The notes beneath the pieces are model-generated. The model had not been told where the DNA came from and did not search any database. It saw nothing but the letters and a program-made list of their open reading frames with translations. The position numbers and the translations under genes are program-made. A stretch of 43,216 nt of DNA, taken from positions 1 through 43,216 of IMG/VR virus record IMGVR_UViG_3300027631_000041; one strand, given 5' to 3'. This document shows positions 658 to 43,216 of this stretch, piece by piece (position 1 is the first letter of the stretch; each line of letters starts with the position of its first letter). This DNA comes from a virus.

Positions 658-921
658 TTACATCCTTGATGCCATGTCTGCTTTATGTGCCTGATTGCGA
701 TTATGCTGATCACGCAACAATAAATATTTTTCCCAAGAACATGAGCAATATTTATCAGGACCTTCTTTGTTATTCAAGGATTGCGCATCATTTTTTGCAT
801 GCATTTCACCAAACGCAAACCACCCAACTAACTCTTTGGTTTCATCTTCATATACCACAAACACTGGCCAGTTGTTTTTGATACAGACATTCAGTTCTAG
901 ATTCACACTTTTATTATTCAT
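658..921 (-). CDS. Hypothetical protein, 87 aa
   Basis: Unrecognised small protein. The middle (VFVVYEDETKELVGWFAF) looks like a pair of beta strands, and the C-terminal half is polar with two Cys (CSCSW). The start overlaps the stop of the 918-1136 gene by four bases (ATGA), so it is probably coupled to it. Confidence 0.55.
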   Translation of the reverse strand: MNNKSVNLELNVCIKNNWPVFVVYEDETKELVGWFAFGEMHAKNDAQSLNNKEGPDKYCSCSWEKYLLLRDQHNRNQAHKADMASRM

Positions 922-1136
922 TGCATAGATTCCGTTCGATGGGTGTCACGTTTCGTATTACATTCACTAGAATATTTTGCCCAGTTTTGCAAAACAAACT
1001 TGCCAGCAGCAAGACGTTCATTTTCTTCTGGGGTGTTCAGCCCAGTAAACAATCCTAGTGCTAGTACCATATTCTCAATATCGCTATTCTTGGTCCGATT
1101 AATACCCAATAGATCAATAGCACGTTCAAGATTCAT
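918..1136 (-). CDS. Hypothetical protein, 72 aa
   Basis: Unrecognised, mostly helical, soluble. GGAGG lies just upstream of the start. The sigma70-type promoter at 1172-1200 reads into it, so it heads a small operon with the 658-921 and 336-635 genes. Confidence 0.55.
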   Translation of the reverse strand: MNLERAIDLLGINRTKNSDIENMVLALGLFTGLNTPEENERLAAGKFVLQNWAKYSSECNTKRDTHRTESMQ

Positions 1137-1171
1137 AACTTACCTCCACAGTAACAAGTTCTTCTGTGATA

Positions 1172-1200
1172 ACCATAACACACATACCTGTAAAGGTCAA
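1172..1200 (-). promoter_or_regulatory. Sigma70-type promoter
   Basis: -35 TTGACC (1195-1200), 17-base spacer, -10 TATGGT (1172-1177), about 35 bases upstream of the 918-1136 start codon. Confidence 0.55.
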
Positions 1201-1220
1201 GTATAATAGTAGATCCATCA

Positions 1221-1385
1221 TCATTTTTTGTTATCCCCAATAAACGTTCGCAAACTCACATCAACGTCAACATGCTCAACTACACAAACTAAATCATCTA
1301 GCAGAGTATTCACTAAAGCATCAGCATCAGCCTTGCGAGTAGTAATAGCAACAATATTGTCTTCAGCATCCTTTACAATATACAT
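1221..1385 (-). CDS. Hypothetical protein, 54 aa
   Basis: Small protein beginning MYIVKDAEDN, reading like one small alpha/beta fold. A longer frame runs back to 1460 inside the 1393-1812 gene. The ATG at 1385 is chosen because it lies just beyond that gene's stop, and the ribosome site GGAGG lies within that gene's last codons. No family recognised. Confidence 0.5.
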   Translation of the reverse strand: MYIVKDAEDNIVAITTRKADADALVNTLLDDLVCVVEHVDVDVSLRTFIGDNKK

Positions 1386-1392
1386 TTTATTC

Positions 1393-1812
1393 TTATGCCT
1401 CCTGCATGTAAGGTTTGTCCCACTTACCAACATTGATGTCAAGATAGTAAGCAGTATCAAAATAATCAGTCATAATATCACTATTATCAAACCATTTATT
1501 GCCTTTCATCGCACCAACTAGTTCTGCGAAAAACTTGCCAACTTTTGGGTCATGTGAATTTTCAGGACCAGTGTGATATGGATTTGCTTGATAGTTGTCT
1601 TTGACTTCATAAGCAGTCTGTCCACGGCGTTCTGCGGATTCTTGATTTTTCTTATTCGCATCCCCAATAAGATCAAGATTGCCACTTTTGATATTTACGA
1701 CAAGCGAAGAATAATTGTGAACACCAATAGTGCCTTTCATGTCATATTTTTTGAGGACTGCTTTGATACCGGGAGCAAGTTCTTTTTTCATCGCTTGAGA
1801 CATATAAGCCAT
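1393..1812 (-). CDS. Conserved phage hypothetical protein, 139 aa
   Basis: The N-terminal 45 residues (IKAVLKKYDMKGTIGV, then SSLVVNIKSGNLDLI) look like a compact alpha/beta domain, and the C-terminus has an aromatic stretch (DYFDTAYYLDINVGKW). The pattern resembles a conserved hypothetical family seen in many large phages; function unknown. It is driven by the strong promoter at 1843-1870 and followed by the 1221-1385 gene. Confidence 0.6.
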   Translation of the reverse strand: MAYMSQAMKKELAPGIKAVLKKYDMKGTIGVHNYSSLVVNIKSGNLDLIGDANKKNQESAERRGQTAYEVKDNYQANPYHTGPENSHDPKVGKFFAELVGAMKGNKWFDNSDIMTDYFDTAYYLDINVGKWDKPYMQEA

Positions 1813-1842
1813 TTTGATCTCTCTTTCGTTGCTTTCATATAT

Positions 1843-1870
1843 ATTATAGCACTGATTCGCGCATTGTCAA
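1843..1870 (-). promoter_or_regulatory. Strong sigma70-type promoter with GANTC in spacer
   Basis: -35 TTGACA (1865-1870), 16-base spacer containing GAATC, -10 TATAAT (1843-1848). Both hexamers are perfect consensus. It reads into the 1393-1812 gene and sits just after the terminator at 1882-1908. Confidence 0.75.
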
Positions 1871-1881
1871 GTTTTTGATAC

Positions 1882-1908
1882 AAAAAAAACGCTCCCGAAG
1901 GAGCGTTT
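1882..1908 (-). terminator. Rho-independent terminator with TTCG tetraloop
   Basis: On the minus strand, AACGCTCC - TTCG - GGAGCGTT is followed by a run of T. It terminates the transcript carrying the 1969-2220 gene and the tRNA array. Confidence 0.85.
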
Positions 1909-1968
1909 GATATAAAACTATTTGAGCATATGCTGGTATAATGAAATGATGTGTGGAAGTTGTATTGT

Positions 1969-2220
1969 CTACTTAAATTCATCAATCTCTTTGACTCTCT
2001 TTACCGTTTGATATGCTCCTGCTGGCTTATTCATTGCTTGGACAAGTTCATCCCACATATCAGGACTAATCATAATCGAATGATAGTATCCTAACTCTTC
2101 ATCCCATTGCCGAATGAACGCTATATCATCGTAAAGAATTACGGATAAATCTTCGTTTTCAGCGCAGTCATCAATCACCACTATTTCTATTTCATCATGT
2201 TCCATTTCGATAGTAAACAT
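1969..2220 (-). CDS. Hypothetical acidic protein, 83 aa
   Basis: Unrecognised, strongly acidic (HDEIEIVVIDDCAENED). AAGGA lies seven bases before the ATG. It is the last gene before the terminator at 1882-1908 and lies immediately downstream of the tRNA array. Confidence 0.6.
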   Translation of the reverse strand: MFTIEMEHDEIEIVVIDDCAENEDLSVILYDDIAFIRQWDEELGYYHSIMISPDMWDELVQAMNKPAGAYQTVKRVKEIDEFK

Positions 2221-2238
2221 TTATCATTCCTTATTTTG

Positions 2239-2309
2239 AGCGGGTAGACGGAATCGAACCGACAACCGAAGATTGGAAATCTCATATGATACCTTTTCAC
2301 CATACCCGC
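2239..2309 (-). tRNA. tRNA-Gly(UCC)
   Basis: The acceptor GCGGGTA/TACCCGC is perfect, the anticodon loop is TTTCCAA and discriminator U73 matches bacterial tRNA-Gly. The T-loop TTCGATT is canonical, with one mismatch in the T-stem. CCA is not encoded, unlike most members of the array. Confidence 0.8.
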
Positions 2310-2317
2310 ATTATTTT

Positions 2318-2392
2318 TGGTGCCTGCGGAAGGTACTGCCCCTTCTATCACTCGCTTATCAGGCGAGGCCCTCGCTTTCCGGACCCACAGGC
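2318..2392 (-). tRNA. tRNA-Ile(GAU), unusual T-loop
   Basis: The acceptor GCCTGTG/CGCAGGC pairs throughout, with A73 and encoded CCA. The anticodon stem CTCGC/GCGAG is perfect with loop CTGATAA. The T-stem GAAGG/CCTTC is perfect, but the loop is GGCAGTA and lacks the T54, Psi55 and A58 positions. Confidence 0.65.
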
Positions 2393-2398
2393 ATTATT

Positions 2399-2472
2399 TG
2401 GTTGCGTCGGTAGGACTCGATACCTACAGTTACAGAATATGAGTCTGTCGTGTTACTTTACACTACATCGCA
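2399..2472 (-). tRNA. tRNA-Met or tRNA-Ile2 (CAU)
   Basis: The acceptor TGCGATG/CGACGCA has one mismatch; A73 and CCA are encoded. D-stem GTGT/ACAC and anticodon stem ACAGA/TCTGT enclose loop CTCATAT. The T-loop is one base longer than usual. The first pair is T:A, so it is not a typical initiator. Elongator Met and lysidine-type Ile2 cannot be told apart here. Confidence 0.7.
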
Positions 2473-2499
2473 TCAACTATATTTAGTCATTACTTGGAA

Positions 2500-2559
2500 G
2501 ATACACCAACCGTTTTATTACTTTCCACAAACGGTACCGGTCTATTAAGTCAGTGTATC
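2500..2559 (-). other. tRNA-like nested hairpin of unknown nature
   Basis: A perfect 7-bp outer stem (GATACAC/GTGTATC, 2500-2506 with 2553-2559) encloses a perfect 7-bp inner stem (ACCGTTT/AAACGGT, 2509-2515 with 2529-2535). It sits between two tRNA genes and has acceptor-like spacing but no T-arm and a 13-base inner loop. It may be a decayed tRNA or a processing spacer. Confidence 0.35.
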
Positions 2560-2569
2560 ATCAAAGTAA

Positions 2570-2657
2570 TGGTGGACCAGATGAGATTCGAACTCATGAC
2601 GGTATTGCTACTCCGGATTAAAAGTCCGGTCCCTTCGGCCTCTCGGGTCACTGGTCC
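2570..2657 (-). tRNA. Type II tRNA with UUU anticodon (Lys codons?)
   Basis: The acceptor GGACCAG/CTGGTCC is perfect, with A73 and encoded CCA. The anticodon stem CCGGA/TCCGG holds loop CTTTTAA, giving anticodon UUU. The variable region is 15 bases and can form a 3-bp stem with a GCAA loop, so this is a long-arm tRNA. The D-arm resembles bacterial tRNA-Tyr/Ser rather than tRNA-Lys. The amino acid identity is therefore uncertain. Confidence 0.75.
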
Positions 2658-2797
2658 ATATATATTTCTTTGCGCAAATTTTGTTTAGCAGCCTTGCGTT
2701 CTGCTTTTTTCGTTTTACCGTGCGCACCAGAACGTGTCGTCATTAAACACATAACGATTGGATTACGTTCTTTGGACACCTTCATCTTTCGTTTCAT
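2648..2797 (-). CDS. Small basic conserved phage protein, 49 aa
   Basis: Lys/Arg-rich protein with a core (RSGAHGKTKKAERK) that resembles small basic proteins of T4-like phages; role unknown, nucleic-acid binding plausible. GGAG precedes the ATG at 2797. The last codons run ten bases into the 5' end of the UUU tRNA gene, so the mRNA would be cut when that tRNA is processed. Confidence 0.55.
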   Translation of the reverse strand: MKRKMKVSKERNPIVMCLMTTRSGAHGKTKKAERKAAKQNLRKEIYMDQ

Positions 2798-2811
2798 TTT
2801 CTTTCTCCTTT

Positions 2812-3015
2812 TTACTTGTAAATTTCTATCGTGACCATCCAAAAAGGCTTGCGTGGAATAACCCAACTCATATTCTCAAAGATTTTCGATTCATCTATTA
2901 AAAACGGTCCACTCACATATACGTCAGCACTAGGGTTGTTTCCTGCTTTATGATTACTTACAAATTCTTGCGCATCTTCTTCCGTTGCGAACTCATAGTT
3001 GTTTTCAGTATGCAT
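2812..3015 (-). CDS. Hypothetical protein, 67 aa
   Basis: Begins MHTENNYEFATEEDAQEF; resembles small phage proteins with a ferredoxin-like strand-helix start, otherwise unrecognised. AGGAG lies six bases before the ATG. It sits within the tRNA array between the Thr tRNA and the 2648-2797 gene. Confidence 0.6.
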   Translation of the reverse strand: MHTENNYEFATEEDAQEFVSNHKAGNNPSADVYVSGPFLIDESKIFENMSWVIPRKPFWMVTIEIYK

Positions 3016-3028
3016 CTGCTTCTCCTTT

Positions 3029-3103
3029 TGGTGCTGTTAGCAAGATTTGAACTTGTGATCTCTTCCTTACCAAGAAAGCGTTCTACCCCTGAACTATAAC
3101 AGC
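3029..3103 (-). tRNA. tRNA-Thr(GGU)
   Basis: Acceptor GCTGTTA/TAACAGC is perfect, with A73 and CCA. D-arm GTTC/GAAC, anticodon arm CTTTC-TTGGTAA-GGAAG and T-loop TTCAAAT are canonical. Confidence 0.9.
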
Positions 3104-3121
3104 ATTGTTTCGATTCGTCAA
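3093..3121 (-). promoter_or_regulatory. Candidate sigma70-type promoter overlapping tRNA-Thr
   Basis: -35 TTGACG (3116-3121), then AATC completing a GANTC site, 17-base spacer, -10 TATAGT (3093-3098). The -10 lies inside the 5' end of tRNA-Thr, so transcripts would start within that tRNA and serve the ORFs and tRNAs below it. The -35 block is shared with the promoters at 3969, 4798 and 5178. Confidence 0.4.
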
Positions 3122-3131
3122 GTTTTATTGT

Positions 3132-3213
3132 TGGAAGTCGGTATCAGAGTCGAACTGATTACTTTCGTGCCTGGGATTTGCAAACCCGCCCCTTACCGTC
3201 CGGGCCACCGACC
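3132..3213 (-). tRNA. tRNA-Cys(GCA), atypical
   Basis: The acceptor GGTCGGT/ACCGACT closes with a G:U pair. U73 fits cysteine identity, and CCA is encoded. The D-stem CCC/GGG and T-arm ATCAG-TTCGACT-CTGAT are good. The anticodon loop reads TTGCAAA but its stem has mismatches at both ends, and the variable region is about 12 bases instead of 4-5. Confidence 0.6.
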
Positions 3214-3228
3214 TTCGATTTCGTATTC

Positions 3229-3256
3229 ACTATAACGTTGATTCGTCCAACGTCAA
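3229..3256 (-). promoter_or_regulatory. Sigma70-type promoter for tRNA-Cys
   Basis: -35 TTGACG (3251-3256), 16-base spacer containing GAATC, -10 TATAGT (3229-3234), 15 bases upstream of the tRNA-Cys 5' end. Confidence 0.6.
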
Positions 3257-3264
3257 ATTTTATT

Positions 3265-3340
3265 TGGTGAAAGGCCTGAGGATCGAACTCAGTTCTTCGG
3301 TGCTTCAAACCGACGCTATGACCACATCAGCTAACCTTTC
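3265..3340 (-). tRNA. tRNA-Phe(GAA)
   Basis: Acceptor GAAAGGT/GCCTTTC, A73 and CCA encoded. Anticodon arm TCGGT-TTGAAGC-ACCGA and T-arm CTGAG-TTCGATC-CTCAG are perfect. Confidence 0.9.
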
Positions 3341-3348
3341 ATTTATTT

Positions 3349-3424
3349 TGGTACCAGTTGTAGGCAACGATCCTATCTATTCAAGGTCCACAACCTCGCG
3401 TGTATCCATAAACACTTAACTGGC
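3349..3424 (-). tRNA. tRNA-His(GUG), A73 type
   Basis: Acceptor GCCAGTT/AACTGGT (first pair G:U), A73 and encoded CCA. Anticodon arm CGAGG-TTGTGGA-CCTTG. The base before position 1 is T, so the G-1 of ordinary tRNA-His is not encoded. A73 without G-1 is known for tRNA-His in many Alphaproteobacteria, which points to the host. The T-loop ATCGTTG is atypical. Confidence 0.8.
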
Positions 3425-3434
3425 AAAATATGTT

Positions 3435-3515
3435 TGGCGCCCACGGTAGGAGTCGAACCTACATCTACATCCAGTTACCTTACTCTCCGTTCGTAGCGGA
3501 GGGGGATACGTGGGC
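3435..3515 (-). tRNA. tRNA-like, Arg(ACG)-type anticodon arm, no D-arm
   Basis: The acceptor GCCCACG/CGTGGGC is perfect, with G73 and encoded CCA, and the T-arm GTAGG-TTCGACT-CCTAC is canonical. A perfect arm CTCCG-CTACGAA-CGGAG matches the bacterial Arg(ACG) loop. Only seven bases separate the acceptor from this arm, so no D-arm can form, while about 22 bases lie between it and the T-arm. Either a D-armless tRNA or a rearranged, possibly inactive one. Confidence 0.55.
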
Positions 3516-3521
3516 ATTGTT

Positions 3522-3597
3522 TGGTAGTGTATCATGGAATCGAACCATGTAATTATTCCTTATGAGAGAATTGCGTGAACCATTTCGCCTATACACT
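3522..3597 (-). tRNA. tRNA-Met or tRNA-Ile2 (CAU), second copy
   Basis: Acceptor AGTGTAT/ATACACT is perfect, with A73 and CCA. D-arm GCG/CGC, anticodon arm ATTCT-CTCATAA-GGAAT and T-arm CATGG-TTCGATT-CCATG are good. Two CAU tRNAs in one array suggest that one reads Met and the other AUA as Ile2. Confidence 0.85.
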
Positions 3598-3692
3598 ATA
3601 TTTCTTGGGATCATCGAATTTCTTCTATCTCAAACATACATCATTAAATTTTCAAAAAGCGGAGACAGTTTCCTGTCAGATATTGTGTTGGC

Positions 3693-3768
3693 TGGTTGGG
3701 CTACTAGGACTCGAACCTAGACTCTTCTGAACCAAAATCAGGTGTGTTACCAATTACACCATAGCCCA
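3693..3768 (-). tRNA. tRNA-Gln(UUG)
   Basis: Acceptor TGGGCTA/TAGCCCA, A73 and CCA encoded. D-arm GTGT/ACAC, anticodon loop TTTTGGT on a CTGA/TCAG stem, T-arm CTAGG-TTCGAGT-CCTAG. The overall sequence resembles bacterial tRNA-Gln. The 95 bases between it and the next tRNA hold only a short GACAG-GAAA-CTGTC hairpin (3664-3677). Confidence 0.9.
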
Positions 3769-3770
3769 AT

Positions 3771-3805
3771 AAAAAACCCTCGGAGATTTCTCTGCGAGGG
3801 TTTTT
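3771..3805 (-). terminator. Bidirectional rho-independent terminator
   Basis: AAAAACCCTCG pairs with CGAGGGTTTTT around a smaller GAGA/TCTC stem. It works on paper in both directions. On the minus strand it ends the transcript of the small peptide gene at 3830-3928, directly before tRNA-Gln. Confidence 0.85.
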
Positions 3806-3829
3806 GTGATCGTTATTTGGATATGTTAT

Positions 3830-3928
3830 CTATCCATTACCGAAACCCCCAATTGAACAACCGCGCATAAACTGGCGGCATCCAAAGATGCTCTTAATAA
3901 TCTGTTTATGTTGAGTTGAACGGGTCAT
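3830..3928 (-). CDS. Candidate small peptide, 32 aa
   Basis: A short frame beginning MTRSTQHKQIIKS with a basic start and a Cys/Gly-rich end (RGCSIGGFGNG). It has its own promoter (3969-3997) and terminator (3771-3805), which argues that the region is a dedicated unit. AAAGGA lies about 13 bases before the ATG. An in-frame ATG four codons earlier (3940) sits too close to that site. No family recognised; the unit could also be a small RNA. Confidence 0.45.
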   Translation of the reverse strand: MTRSTQHKQIIKSIFGCRQFMRGCSIGGFGNG

Positions 3929-3968
3929 CGAAAGTTCCATTTCCTTTTATCTATAATAACTTGTTTAT

Positions 3969-3997
3969 AATATATAGTATCTATATTGATTCGTCAA
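3969..3997 (-). promoter_or_regulatory. Sigma70-type promoter with TTGACGAATC
   Basis: -35 TTGACG (3992-3997) running into a GANTC site, 17-base spacer, -10 TATATT (3969-3974). Confidence 0.65.
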
Positions 3998-4162
3998 GTA
4001 TTTTCTTACACTTTATTTATCTTTTTATAGTAAAAATAGATCGTATTGAGCGCCATTCATACTATACTTACTTTTTTACATTTTTTACATTTTACTTTCA
4101 GATCACGCGATTGCGGAGAGCCTTACATAATCATTTTATCGTTTTATAATAGTGCTGAAATA

Positions 4163-4720
4163 TTAGAAATTCAAACGAGCGCCTACTACGACTTGTTCAC
4201 TATCAGTGTTGTATTCGCCGTATAGACTTACAGTTTGATCCATCACGTAGGATCGATCAACGGTGTATTGAATACCAAAATCTGCTCCATCCCAAGTAGG
4301 ATTGTCCAGATTGACTGTAGTTCCGACATACGCAACAAAACTTTCATTGATGCCATAGTTTACACGACCTGTGTATTCAACTATTGATTCTTCAGTGCGC
4401 AAGTTATACTCTAGCGTGCCAGTATGAATCAACGAAATCCGATCAGTAACCATATAATCGAATTCAAGTTCAGCACCAACATGCACTCCGGTAGCATTTG
4501 GATCTTCTAGGTCTACTTCTATTCCAGTATACAGACGAAGTTGATCAAACGCCTGATAGTTTACATTGCCTACATAAATGGAACCAAAATCTTCGGTAGT
4601 TACATTGTATTCTAGGTTAATTTCACTATCGAACGTTAGTCCTGGCGTATTGAAATCCAGAGCAAATGCTGAACCTGAAGAAAGTGCGACAATTGCTGCG
4701 GCGACGAGGGTTGTTTTCAT
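4163..4720 (-). CDS. Outer-membrane beta-barrel protein with signal peptide
   Basis: Begins MKTTLVAAAIVALSSGSAFA, a classic Sec signal peptide with predicted cleavage AFA|LD. The rest alternates polar and hydrophobic residues in strands (IEVDLEDPN, GAELEFDYMV, VSLYGEY) and ends in Phe (ARLNF), as outer-membrane barrels do. About 165 mature residues suggest 8-10 strands. Start 4720 is chosen over 4747 because AAGGA precedes it and the signal peptide begins there. A phage barrel protein could alter the infected cell's surface, as Lom does in lambda; that role is inference. The 370 bases downstream hold no clear gene apart from the 3830-3928 peptide. Confidence 0.75.
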   Translation of the reverse strand: MKTTLVAAAIVALSSGSAFALDFNTPGLTFDSEINLEYNVTTEDFGSIYVGNVNYQAFDQLRLYTGIEVDLEDPNATGVHVGAELEFDYMVTDRISLIHTGTLEYNLRTEESIVEYTGRVNYGINESFVAYVGTTVNLDNPTWDGADFGIQYTVDRSYVMDQTVSLYGEYNTDSEQVVVGARLNF

Positions 4721-40502: not shown

Positions 40503-41152
40503 TATTCTTCAAACTCTGGTAAAGTCAATGATATCTGCTTTGAAACAATAATGAAATTATGTTTCTCAAATGCTTCTTCTGCAGTCAACTCATACGAATC
40601 TTGCTGAATAACTTCAAACCCAGCACGTTGAAATAATTTTTTATAAGTATCAACATGCAGTGTTGCGTAATATGTGCTGTCTGCTGGTTCAGGAATCTCA
40701 ATGTATGCCCAGCCACCTGTTTTCATAACACGGTTCATTTCAACAATGGTAAAGAATGGAAACGGAGAATAATGTAGGCTCTGTCTTGCCCACAAAACAT
40801 CAAACGATGAATCATCAAACGTCATGAAATTATAGTCCATTAAATCAATATCAAGACCAAATAGTTTTCCTTCTGCTACACTATCTTCATGCATTGTGAT
40901 ACCAGATACGTTTTCAAACCCCATATCTTTCATTTTTTTCATCGCATAGCCAGATCCGCATCCCATGTCAAGAATGGTGATGTCTTTTTCTTCGGGCGAA
41001 ACTGCTTCGAAAAAAGCAGGCAAGTAAGTATCAATCACTTTATGATCAACGGGAGAACCTTGATGATATGTTTGCTCTCGCGAAACTGCGTTGTGAAATT
41101 GCTTCAATCGTATCCATTTATCCGCCATAGTGAATATCCATTTATCCGTCAT
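40502..41152 (-). CDS. SAM-dependent methyltransferase (class I)
   Basis: 216 aa. ITILDMGCGSGYAM is motif I (glycine-rich SAM loop), SGITMHEDSV the acidic motif II region, FDVLWARQSLHY motif IV and GGWAYIEIPEP post-motif. It resembles small-molecule or lipid methyltransferases rather than DNA enzymes. The substrate is unknown. The start overlaps the nrdB stop (ATGA). The first eight codons are a tandem duplication: the ATG with TDKWIFT is followed by a second ATG with ADKWI; only the first has GGAGG. Confidence 0.8.
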   Translation of the reverse strand: MTDKWIFTMADKWIRLKQFHNAVSREQTYHQGSPVDHKVIDTYLPAFFEAVSPEEKDITILDMGCGSGYAMKKMKDMGFENVSGITMHEDSVAEGKLFGLDIDLMDYNFMTFDDSSFDVLWARQSLHYSPFPFFTIVEMNRVMKTGGWAYIEIPEPADSTYYATLHVDTYKKLFQRAGFEVIQQDSYELTAEEAFEKHNFIIVSKQISLTLPEFEE

Positions 41153-42279
41153 AGTGAATATCCTCCAAATGTATCTTTATCAACATCTTGCTTGACTCCT
41201 CCCAAAACGTAAGATACAATTTCTGTTTCTTGGGGTGCCACTTGGACTTCTGCGCCTGCAATCCATTTTTGCGTCCACGGTAATGGATTCGCTTGTGGTA
41301 CGCTATACGGACATCTTAAACCAACAGCCGTCATTCGCTTGTGCCCAATCCATTCAATATATCGATGTAGAAGGTCTGCGTTCAATCCAATCATTGACCC
41401 GTCTTTGAATAGATAGTTTGCCCATTCTTTTTCTTGCTCAATAGCAGAAACAAACAGTTGGATCATTTCATCTTCCAGTTCAGCGGATATTTTGATATAA
41501 TCTGGATCATCTTTTGGTAGAAGTTTCAATAATGTTTGCGTAAATGCCAAATGAAGATTTTCATCGCGAGCAATAAACTTAATAATTTTTGCATTGCCTT
41601 CCATTTTCTTTAGTTCGGCAAATGCCCATGAACAAGCAAACGAAACATAAAATCGTACTCCCTCAAGAATATTCACACTCATTAATGTGCGCCAAATATC
41701 TTTCTTGATTTCATACGTATCAATGTTTACTGTTTCGCCGTTTACCGTATGTTTACCTTCACCCAAAAGAGTGTACCATTGTGCTTTTTCAATCAAAGAA
41801 TCGTAATTATTAGAAATATCATCAGCACAATCAAGAATTTCTTGTATCTCCATCATTTCATCAAAAATAATAGATGGGTCAGAATACACAGTACGAATAA
41901 TATGCGTATAGGAACGACTATGAATCGTTTCATTGAATGTCCATGTTTGAATCCAAGATTCAAGTTCTGGTAAACTACAAATAGGACCAAACGCTTCTAC
42001 TGGTGCGCGTCCTTGAACACTGTCTAACAAAATTTGACGTTTCAGATTGGATGTGAAAATGTGTTCTTCGTGTGTAGTAAGGTTTTTGAAATCGTTAGCA
42101 TCTTTAAGAATATCTACTTCTTCTGGGCGCCAAAAGAAACCCAACTGCTTATCCGTCAGTTTGTCAATTTGCTTATACTTTAGCGTATCATATCGTTGAA
42201 TTGCGACGCCGCCTGATGGATCAAGAAATGCTAATACTTTAGTATGGTCGCTATTATTTTTCGAATCGAAAACCGTCAT
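41149..42279 (-). CDS. nrdB: Ribonucleotide reductase class Ia, beta subunit
   Basis: 376 aa. The di-iron and radical residues are present: WTFNETIHSRSY gives Glu, His and the radical Tyr in the E-x2-H-x3-Y spacing, and ARDENLHLAF gives the second E-x2-H pair. It supplies the tyrosyl radical to NrdA to make deoxyribonucleotides. It has its own promoter (42308-42336) and follows nrdA. Confidence 0.95.
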   Translation of the reverse strand: MTVFDSKNNSDHTKVLAFLDPSGGVAIQRYDTLKYKQIDKLTDKQLGFFWRPEEVDILKDANDFKNLTTHEEHIFTSNLKRQILLDSVQGRAPVEAFGPICSLPELESWIQTWTFNETIHSRSYTHIIRTVYSDPSIIFDEMMEIQEILDCADDISNNYDSLIEKAQWYTLLGEGKHTVNGETVNIDTYEIKKDIWRTLMSVNILEGVRFYVSFACSWAFAELKKMEGNAKIIKFIARDENLHLAFTQTLLKLLPKDDPDYIKISAELEDEMIQLFVSAIEQEKEWANYLFKDGSMIGLNADLLHRYIEWIGHKRMTAVGLRCPYSVPQANPLPWTQKWIAGAEVQVAPQETEIVSYVLGGVKQDVDKDTFGGYSL

Positions 42280-42307: not shown

Positions 42308-42336
42308 ATTGTACGCGAAAAAGTTATAAATGTCAA
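42308..42336 (-). promoter_or_regulatory. Sigma70-type promoter of nrdB
   Basis: -35 TTGACA (42331-42336), 17-base spacer, -10 TACAAT (42308-42313), inside the end of the 42333-42524 frame. Confidence 0.65.
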
Positions 42337-42524
42337 TGGCAATGCGACGATCTACAGGCATTAAAGTGCCAGCGTGCCATTGTCGCGAACCTACCTGTCT
42401 TATTACAATACGGACAGGTTATTTTCTGTGTTGGAATGTCCTTCTTTGCCTCCGATATTTTTCTTCTGTTAGTAAGTCCTTTAGTCTCATATCGTACAAC
42501 TGTCACATTCAGAATCTTCATCAT
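42333..42524 (-). CDS. Small zinc-finger ORF, possible homing-endonuclease remnant
   Basis: 63 aa. CPYCNKTGRFATMARWHFNAC is a C-x2-C...H-x3-C zinc site of the kind found in phage HNH/GIY-YIG homing endonucleases (MxRWHFDNC). The frame overlaps the last 38 bases of nrdA and has no clear ribosome site, so it may be a decayed end of a longer gene. It sits directly between nrdA (with its split intein) and nrdB. Confidence 0.45.
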   Translation of the reverse strand: MMKILNVTVVRYETKGLTNRRKISEAKKDIPTQKITCPYCNKTGRFATMARWHFNACRSSHCH

Positions 42525-43026
42525 TTAAATCGCCCGTTGGCAAATCTTCTAATGTTTTGTCCACATCAATCTCACCTTGTCCATCATATGTTTGGAAGTA
42601 ATAAAGTTGCTTACCACCTAGTTTGTAGAACATTAACAAATGCTGTAACATTTCAGACATTGGAATTTTTTCGTCTGGATAAAACTGAGGGTTGTAGGAC
42701 GTATTCACAGAAATGCCTTGGTCAATATACTTTTGAAGAATTGATACAATTTTCAAATATCCTTCTGGTGATTCTTGCTCCCAAAGTAACTCATATTTTT
42801 TCTTTAGATTGTGAATGCCGGGAACAACTTGGCGTAACGCACCATGCTTGGATTGCTTCACACTCACATAACTACGTGGTGGTTCAATGCCATTTGTAGA
42901 GTTGGAAATCTGTGCTGATGTATTGTGACTAATCACCCCATTACTAAGTTGATATGTTTCTTTGTCAGTAGATACATCCCACGTATGTTCAATTGCTATG
43001 TCTCTGGTAATCTTCTTAATCTTCAT
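42487..43026 (-). CDS. nrdA: C-intein fused to the C-terminal part of NrdA
   Basis: The first 35 residues (MKIKKITRDIAIEHTWDV to GVISHN) are an intein C-terminal fragment ending in the invariant His-Asn; the next residue, Thr, is the +1 nucleophile. The remaining 144 residues are the NrdA C-terminus (TSAQISNSTNGIEPPR; QLYYFQTYDG with the two radical-path Tyr; CDSCTI with the redox Cys pair). It must join in trans with the N-terminal product encoded at higher coordinates. GGAG lies seven bases before the ATG. Confidence 0.92.
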   Translation of the reverse strand: MKIKKITRDIAIEHTWDVSTDKETYQLSNGVISHNTSAQISNSTNGIEPPRSYVSVKQSKHGALRQVVPGIHNLKKKYELLWEQESPEGYLKIVSILQKYIDQGISVNTSYNPQFYPDEKIPMSEMLQHLLMFYKLGGKQLYYFQTYDGQGEIDVDKTLEDLPTGDLNDEDSECDSCTI

Positions 43027-43037
43027 TTGTCAACTCC

Positions 43038-43216
43038 TCAAACGCTAATAATTTCATCTGTTTCACGAAGATCCTTTACTTCTATCCATTCCTCTACATG
43101 TTCTCTATTGACCAGTAGTTTATGATTTTCAGTAAAGCGATATACTGATCCGTCTTCCAATTCAATTTCAGTCATCGACTTCGGTCCATTATAATAGCAT
43201 TCATATGCAATGCTAT
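43038..43216 (-). CDS. nrdA: End of the N-intein fused to NrdA N-terminal part (partial)
   Basis: The last 58 codons of a frame that enters from the right edge. The sequence (SMTEIELEDGSVYRFTENHKLLVN, then WIEVKDLRETDEIISV and stop) is the characteristic final stretch of a split-intein N-fragment (block B-to-end pattern: TENHKLLVNR, WxxVKDL, DEI). The start and the extein are outside the window. The stop is 11 bases before the C-intein ATG and in a different frame. Confidence 0.88.
   Translation of the reverse strand, partial: SIAYECYYNGPKSMTEIELEDGSVYRFTENHKLLVNREHVEEWIEVKDLRETDEIISV

What the first reader, a model, noticed from the sequence alone, without database searches (positions are those of the whole stretch)
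42920..43216. Split intein in nrdA with its halves encoded 11 bp apart
The 43038-43216 frame ends as an intein N-fragment (SVYRFTENHKLLVN ... DEIISV, stop). The next gene starts 11 bp later in another frame with a 35-residue C-intein ending SHN|T, followed by the NrdA C-terminus. Active ribonucleotide reductase would need protein trans-splicing. No homing endonuclease lies between the halves, but a zinc-finger ORF (42333-42524) of homing-endonuclease type lies just downstream. Split NrdA inteins are known from marine metagenomes; this adjacency may be a naturally compact form, and the C-fragment is short enough to be a fast-splicing candidate.
Basis: partly seen in the sequence, partly recalled or inferred. 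Interest (0 to 1): 0.85.

Follow-up and report, generated by a model that had tools for sequence, protein, structure and literature searches.

The report
Compact split intein in viral nrdA
A phage gene for the DNA-building-block enzyme ribonucleotide reductase is cut in two by a protein-splicing element whose halves are encoded 11 bases apart, apparently because the mobile endonuclease gene that normally sits between them was lost, so the enzyme must be rejoined after translation.

Summary
On the minus strand an N-intein frame (43214-43038) stops, and 11 bp later, in another frame behind a strong ribosome-binding site, an ORF (43026-42487) begins with a 35-aa C-intein ending SHN|T, followed by the NrdA C-terminus. 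The window ends inside the N-intein. A second contig of the same virus (99.98% over 5,337 bp) runs 1.6 kb further and supplies the missing part: NrdA N-extein ending MPAE, then Cys1. No single indel gives a continuous intein. Relatives share the insertion site and split point, usually with a free-standing homing-endonuclease (HEN) ORF between the halves; others keep a HEN remnant, have overlapping ORFs, or are fused into one chain. Best reading: a split intein of the 'fractured gene' kind that has lost its HEN. Protein trans-splicing is inferred, not shown. A 35-aa C-half is ordinary and says nothing about speed. Upstream, outside the window, the same nrdA is split again, intein-free, at the site where mobE splits nrdA of phage Aeh1, so this NrdA is encoded in at least three pieces. 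New variant of a known kind; the HEN-loss series is the most interesting part.

The parts
43038..43214 (-). C-terminal 58 aa of the N-intein half (53 further residues with Cys1, and the N-extein, lie beyond the contig end); TENH block B at 43122-43133; stop TGA 43038-43040
   Evidence: full length seen in L107:1434-1769
43027..43037 (-). 11-bp spacer GGAGTTGACAA; with the preceding GA it forms GAGGAG, a Shine-Dalgarno-like site 7 nt before the ATG; the third frame reads FEELTNED*, resembling the C-terminus of the HEN in relatives (EKELYNED*, TKEDLINED*)
42922..43026 (-). C-intein half, 35 aa MKIKKITRDIAIEHTWDVSTDKETYQLSNGVISHN (block F TWDV, block G ISHN)
42487..42921 (-). NrdA C-extein, begins with +1 Thr (TSAQISNSTNGIEPPRS...), stop at 42487-42489
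   Evidence: PF02867 and NCBIfam class Ia NrdA
42333..42524 (-). 63-aa ORF with CPYC...HFNAC zinc-finger motif, overlaps the nrdA 3' end; possible HEN relic, link to the intein not shown
41149..42279 (-). nrdB, class Ia RNR small subunit (same gene order; named from position and sequence, not scanned)

Best explanation
This is a naturally split, Cys1 / +1 Thr intein at the NrdA site MPAE|TSAQ. It derives from the 'fractured gene' arrangement (N-intein gene, free-standing HEN gene, C-intein gene) by deletion of the HEN gene. The two nrdA parts are translated as separate proteins, probably from one message; the end of the N-half gene and the ribosome-binding site of the C-half gene are so close that coupled re-initiation is likely. 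The N-intein and C-intein then associate, fold as one HINT domain and splice in trans: N-S acyl shift at Cys1, transfer to Thr+1, cyclisation of the last Asn, leaving contiguous NrdA ...MALMPAE-TSAQISN... Shown: both halves, catalytic residues, site, split point, HEN between the halves in relatives, purifying selection. Inferred: trans-splicing activity, coupling, HEN deletion as the cause in this particular virus.
For: Cys1 and N-extein in L107, same virus. TxNH (block B) and HN|T or HN|S (block G) in the related loci. Empty sites MPAE|TSAQISN in uninvaded relatives such as L006, L007, L012. Same split point with an intact HEN ORF between the halves in L004, L005, L089, L095, L100, L101, L103, L104, L119 and cultured Klebsiella phages KP13-7 and phiKp_21; HEN remnants in L003, L094, L097; no HEN in the window virus, L098, L102. 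In L098 the N-half ORF runs in frame into ITLEELNYEN, matching the HEN C-terminus ITIEELYNEN of L104, a deletion scar. dN/dS about 0.14-0.27 in the N-intein and 0.07-0.23 in the C-intein where dS is not saturated, similar to the exteins. AF2 model of the fused relative L102 (pLDDT 76): the 50 best PDB hits are all inteins or Hedgehog Hint domains.
Against: No splicing assay. Intein models score just below curated cut-offs (PF14890 32.8 vs 35.8; TIGR01445 18.0 vs 24.5). TM-scores to PDB inteins are modest (0.34-0.54); the C-terminal 14 residues are poorly modelled. The HEN relic in the window is only about 9 informative bases and overlaps the ribosome-binding site, so selection for the latter could explain it. 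A single HEN-less clade is not rejected (AU p 0.115), so the number of independent losses is uncertain.
Confidence: 0.82

Rival explanations
1. The intein is really continuous (a mini-intein) and the stop and frame change are a sequencing or assembly error.
For: Relative L102 is a continuous fused form of the same intein.
Against: The C frame is closed by TGA 6 nt before the ATG and the N frame by TGA at 43040-43038, so no single indel or frameshift yields one chain. Two assemblies agree; many relatives are split at the same point; a strong ribosome-binding site stands before the ATG.
Confidence: 0.03
2. The halves no longer splice; the two NrdA parts simply assemble non-covalently, like the split NrdA of phage Aeh1, with intein remnants attached.
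For: The same nrdA is also split upstream at the Aeh1 site by non-intein tails, and split Aeh1 NrdA is reported functional (PMC2988022).
Against: All catalytic residues are conserved, both halves show dN well below dS, and about 146 extra residues would remain at a conserved NrdA core site.
Confidence: 0.1
3. Compact split is the older state: a mini-intein was broken by mutation, and HEN genes later invaded the gap in other lineages.
For: The usual view is that split inteins arise from continuous ones (PMC7765530, PMC12707363). Campylobacter phages PC14/NCTC12673 carry a continuous mini-intein of this wider family at the equivalent site.
Against: The HEN-bearing split form spans the whole tree; HEN-less forms sit inside it, fused L102 beside HEN-bearing L101 (92/94 support), and L003 (HEN remnant) has an intein identical to HEN-bearing L095. 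L098 carries HEN C-terminal codons.
Confidence: 0.15

Closest known systems
'Fractured genes' with split inteins and a free-standing homing endonuclease (Dassa et al. 2009, doi 10.1093/nar/gkp095; text not held here, known from citations and own knowledge)
   Same: Conserved enzyme gene, including nrdA, cut by a split intein encoded in adjacent genes; close relatives have a HEN gene between the halves.
   Different: HEN gene absent in this virus; halves 11 bp apart. Site MPAE|T with Thr+1 differs from the SNL|C type (NrdA-2-like, own knowledge), which occurs separately in L003.
NrdA split intein of Klebsiella jumbo phages KP13-7 (OP617745) and phiKp_21 (LC768485)
   Same: Same insertion site and split point, related halves (window C-ORF 51.6% identity; N-intein of relative L005 33.6%).
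   Different: They keep a 323-aa HEN ORF between the halves, overlapping both.
Continuous NrdA mini-intein of Campylobacter phages PC14 / NCTC12673
   Same: Related intein at the equivalent NrdA site, HN|T end.
   Different: One continuous chain, no split; about 38% identity to fused relative L102 over the matched 93 residues.
Genes-in-pieces nrdA of Aeromonas phage Aeh1 (mobE)
   Same: NrdA encoded by separate genes; the upstream break of this virus is at the same place (PF02867 position 221/222) and its HEG shares its C-terminal half with Aeh1 MobE (37%, E 2e-16).
   Different: Aeh1 has no intein and its break is not repaired covalently. The HEG here has a GIY-YIG-like start instead of HNH.

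Membership tests
Intein (HINT, Cys1 type) | Nucleophile Cys at position 1 after the N-extein (block A) | tested here: met
   Not in the window (contig end); met in L107, same virus: MPAE|CQSL
Intein (HINT, Cys1 type) | Block B TxxH | tested here: met
   TENH at 43122-43133; TxNH in the related loci
Intein (HINT, Cys1 type) | C-terminal His-Asn followed by Cys/Ser/Thr | tested here: met
   SHN|T, 42919-42930
Intein (HINT, Cys1 type) | Profile score above curated cut-off | tested here: inconclusive
   Near misses: PF14890 32.8 vs 35.8 bits (E 7e-8); TIGR01445 18.0 vs 24.5
Intein (HINT, Cys1 type) | HINT fold | tested here: met
   For fused relative L102 only: pLDDT 76, 50 best PDB hits are inteins or Hedgehog Hint domains, E from 6e-7, TM 0.34-0.54
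Naturally split intein | Two separate ORFs, each fused to its extein of the same host protein | tested here: met
   PF02867 on both L107 ORFs
Naturally split intein | Protein trans-splicing activity | not testable with these tools
   Needs a co-expression assay
Fractured gene (Dassa et al. 2009) | Free-standing HEN gene between the intein halves | tested here: not met
   Absent in window and L107; present in most relatives
Canonical cis mini-intein | Single continuous chain | tested here: not met
   Stops in the N frame and in the C frame before the C-ORF ATG; met in relative L102
Class Ia RNR large subunit NrdA | PF02867 / class Ia model match | tested here: met
   PF02867 44.3 bits; NF006578 class Ia is the best NCBIfam hit of both parts, partial as expected for fragments

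The most novel reading that the evidence does not exclude
At this one NrdA site, split inteins run the homing cycle to its end: the free-standing HEN decays and is deleted, the halves become adjacent (this virus) or overlap (L098), and in at least one lineage they fuse back into a cis-splicing mini-intein (L102), the reverse of the usual view that split inteins arise from continuous ones.
Probability: 0.5. Interest if true: 0.62.

Novelty: new variant of a known kind. Interest (0 to 1): 0.5.

Why it matters
It gives a natural series, at one insertion site and in one clade, from split intein with endonuclease, through endonuclease remnants, to an 11-bp compact split, overlapping halves and a fused mini-intein. 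That makes the direction of intein splitting and re-fusion, and the fate of a HEN that lies outside the intein reading frame, directly testable with closely related sequences. The same gene also carries a second, non-intein split, so one enzyme would be assembled by both covalent and non-covalent repair. The halves are candidates for the trans-splicing toolbox, of unknown speed.

Tried and rejected
Thermus phage phiYS40 nrdJ-a/nrdJ-b, 12 bp apart, was checked as a possible earlier compact split intein: the two ORFs show no intein halves, rejected. DNA-level search of the junction in the phage collection: no match. HEN remnant of detectable length in the window: none. First AF2 alignment with C-half rows (A4) misaligned the N-half ends and was not used. 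AF2 model of the NrdA tails fused in L124: pLDDT 56, not interpretable. Tree support among the HEN-less forms is weak and a single HEN-less clade is not rejected. Dassa et al. 2009 is not held in the library, so whether compact, HEN-less cases were noted there could not be checked. The claim that a 35-aa C-half suggests fast splicing was rejected as ordinary length (PMC12707363).

Full report
WHAT IS THERE. The window is a 43,216-bp IMG/VR virus record. On the minus strand, from its right end inward, an open frame 43214-43038 (SIAYECYYNGPKSMTEIELEDGSVYRFTENHKLLVNREHVEEWIEVKDLRETDEIISV) ends at TGA. Eleven bases later an ATG at 43026, behind GAGGAGTTGACAA, opens a 179-aa ORF: 35 residues ending SHN, then TSAQISNSTNGIEPPRS..., the NrdA C-terminus. 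nrdB (41149-42279) follows.

THE MISSING HALF. The block-A Cys and N-extein lie outside the window. A scan for the C-intein brought in L107/L099 (IMG/VR 3300024346_000256), which is 99.98% identical over 5,337 bp with an identical junction and reaches 1.6 kb further. Its ORF 831-1769 is NrdA ending ...RNSTLMALMPAE, then CQSLTNEMKLKDGSILSLAEVIQDMG... to the same ISV stop. The N-intein is 111 aa, the C-intein 35 aa, the usual sizes for a split at the HEN position (PMC12707363). Removing both gives MALMPAE-TSAQISN, the sequence of uninvaded relatives (L006, L007, L012 and others).

NOT AN ERROR. The C-ORF frame is closed by TGA two codons before its ATG, and the N frame by its own TGA, so neither one indel nor a ribosomal frameshift can make one chain. 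Two assemblies agree, and the split point is shared by divergent relatives. Where dS is not saturated, dN/dS is about 0.14-0.27 for the N-intein and 0.07-0.23 for the C-intein, similar to the exteins. Many comparisons are saturated, so these figures are rough.

RELATIVES. Scans of viral contigs and of cultured phages show the same site and split point repeatedly. In most, a free-standing ORF of about 325 aa with an HNH-like C-terminus (LDHKFSISRGFI...; phrog_5104, endonuclease VII weakly) lies between the halves, and its 3' end overlaps or abuts the C-half ATG (L004, L005, L089, L095, L100, L101, L103, L104, L119; Klebsiella phages KP13-7 and phiKp_21). In L003, L094 and L097 only parts of it remain. 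In the window virus nothing detectable remains. In L098 the N-half ORF overlaps the C-half ORF by 23 nt and reads ITLEELNYEN at its end, as the HEN does in L104 (ITIEELYNEN), a deletion scar. In L102 the two halves are one 929-aa NrdA chain that keeps the former start Met (...DDIVSVGLSRIK-MKIKKINRN...). In the window the third frame over the junction reads FEELTNED*, like the HEN ends EKELYNED* and TKEDLINED*; since this overlaps the ribosome-binding site, it is suggestive only.

DIRECTION. A tree of the concatenated halves puts HEN-bearing forms throughout and HEN-less forms inside; fused L102 pairs with HEN-bearing L101 (92/94), and L003 with a HEN remnant has an intein identical to L095 with an intact HEN. 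A single clade of the three HEN-less forms is not rejected (p-AU 0.115). Campylobacter phages PC14 and NCTC12673 hold a continuous mini-intein of the wider family at the equivalent site, so the deep ancestor is open. The homing-cycle model (PMC8966425) predicts decay and deletion of the HEN after fixation; here it would act on a HEN that is a separate gene.

FOLD. A model of the continuous relative L102 (pLDDT 76) retrieves only inteins and Hedgehog Hint domains among the 50 best PDB matches (E from 6e-7), with modest TM-scores; the last 14 residues are poorly modelled.

MECHANISM. Most likely: two nrdA parts made from one message, probably by coupled re-initiation; the intein halves associate and splice in trans by the standard Cys1 / Thr+1 / Asn route. 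Catalytic residues and site are shown; activity is inferred.

A SECOND SPLIT. L107 also shows that the N-extein ORF starts mid-enzyme with an acidic 33-aa tail, preceded by a GIY-YIG-like HEG (89-847; the GIY-YIG label is by eye, phrog_314 homing endonuclease E 3e-21) and by the tail end of a further upstream part (1-60). This break lies at PF02867 position 221/222, as in Aeh1 nrdA split by mobE, and the HEG shares its C-terminal half with Aeh1 MobE (37%, E 2e-16). The tails align across relatives and weakly with Aeh1; upstream tails are basic and downstream tails acidic. L098 keeps the tails without the HEG; L124 has both tails fused in one ORF; L031 has this split without the MPAE|T intein. 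So NrdA of this virus is encoded in at least three pieces, two presumably joined by splicing and two held non-covalently, as for Aeh1 (PMC2988022). This lies outside the window.

VERDICT. Observation confirmed; interpretation right in its core, over-read on splicing speed, and best restated as a fractured gene that has lost its endonuclease.

Noticed in passing
L107:1-977 (same virus, beyond the window's right end): nrdA is split again at the Aeh1 mobE site, with a tail on the upstream part, an acidic tail on the downstream part and a GIY-YIG-like HEG between them.
   Followed up: partly
L003:2370-6552: NrdA of a relative holds a cis mini-intein (VKSC|S), a split intein at SNL|C, the tail split and the MPAE|T split intein: four polypeptides for one enzyme.
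   Followed up: partly
L124:1218-1532: The two NrdA tails of other viruses are fused in one continuous ORF here, as a roughly 70-aa insert; structure model too poor to interpret.
   Followed up: partly
L084 (KP13-7) 1376-4558 and L083 (phiKp_21) 846-4558: Cultured Klebsiella jumbo phages carry the MPxE|T split intein with a HEN; in KP13-7 a second split intein (ILVHN|C) with a GIY-YIG-like HEG cuts NrdA further; mostly annotated as hypothetical.
   Followed up: partly
L198 / L199 (Campylobacter phages PC14, NCTC12673): Continuous mini-intein at the equivalent NrdA site; this NrdA part also starts near the Aeh1 break, after a HEG; unannotated in NCTC12673.
   Followed up: partly
42333-42524 (-): 63-aa zinc-finger ORF overlapping the nrdA 3' end, similar to zinc fingers of homing endonucleases; not found in close relatives.
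   Followed up: partly
L200:1727-3694 (Vibrio phage vB_VmeM-32): UvsX appears cut by a split intein with a SegG-like HEG between the halves (from the record's annotation, HintC note).
   Followed up: no
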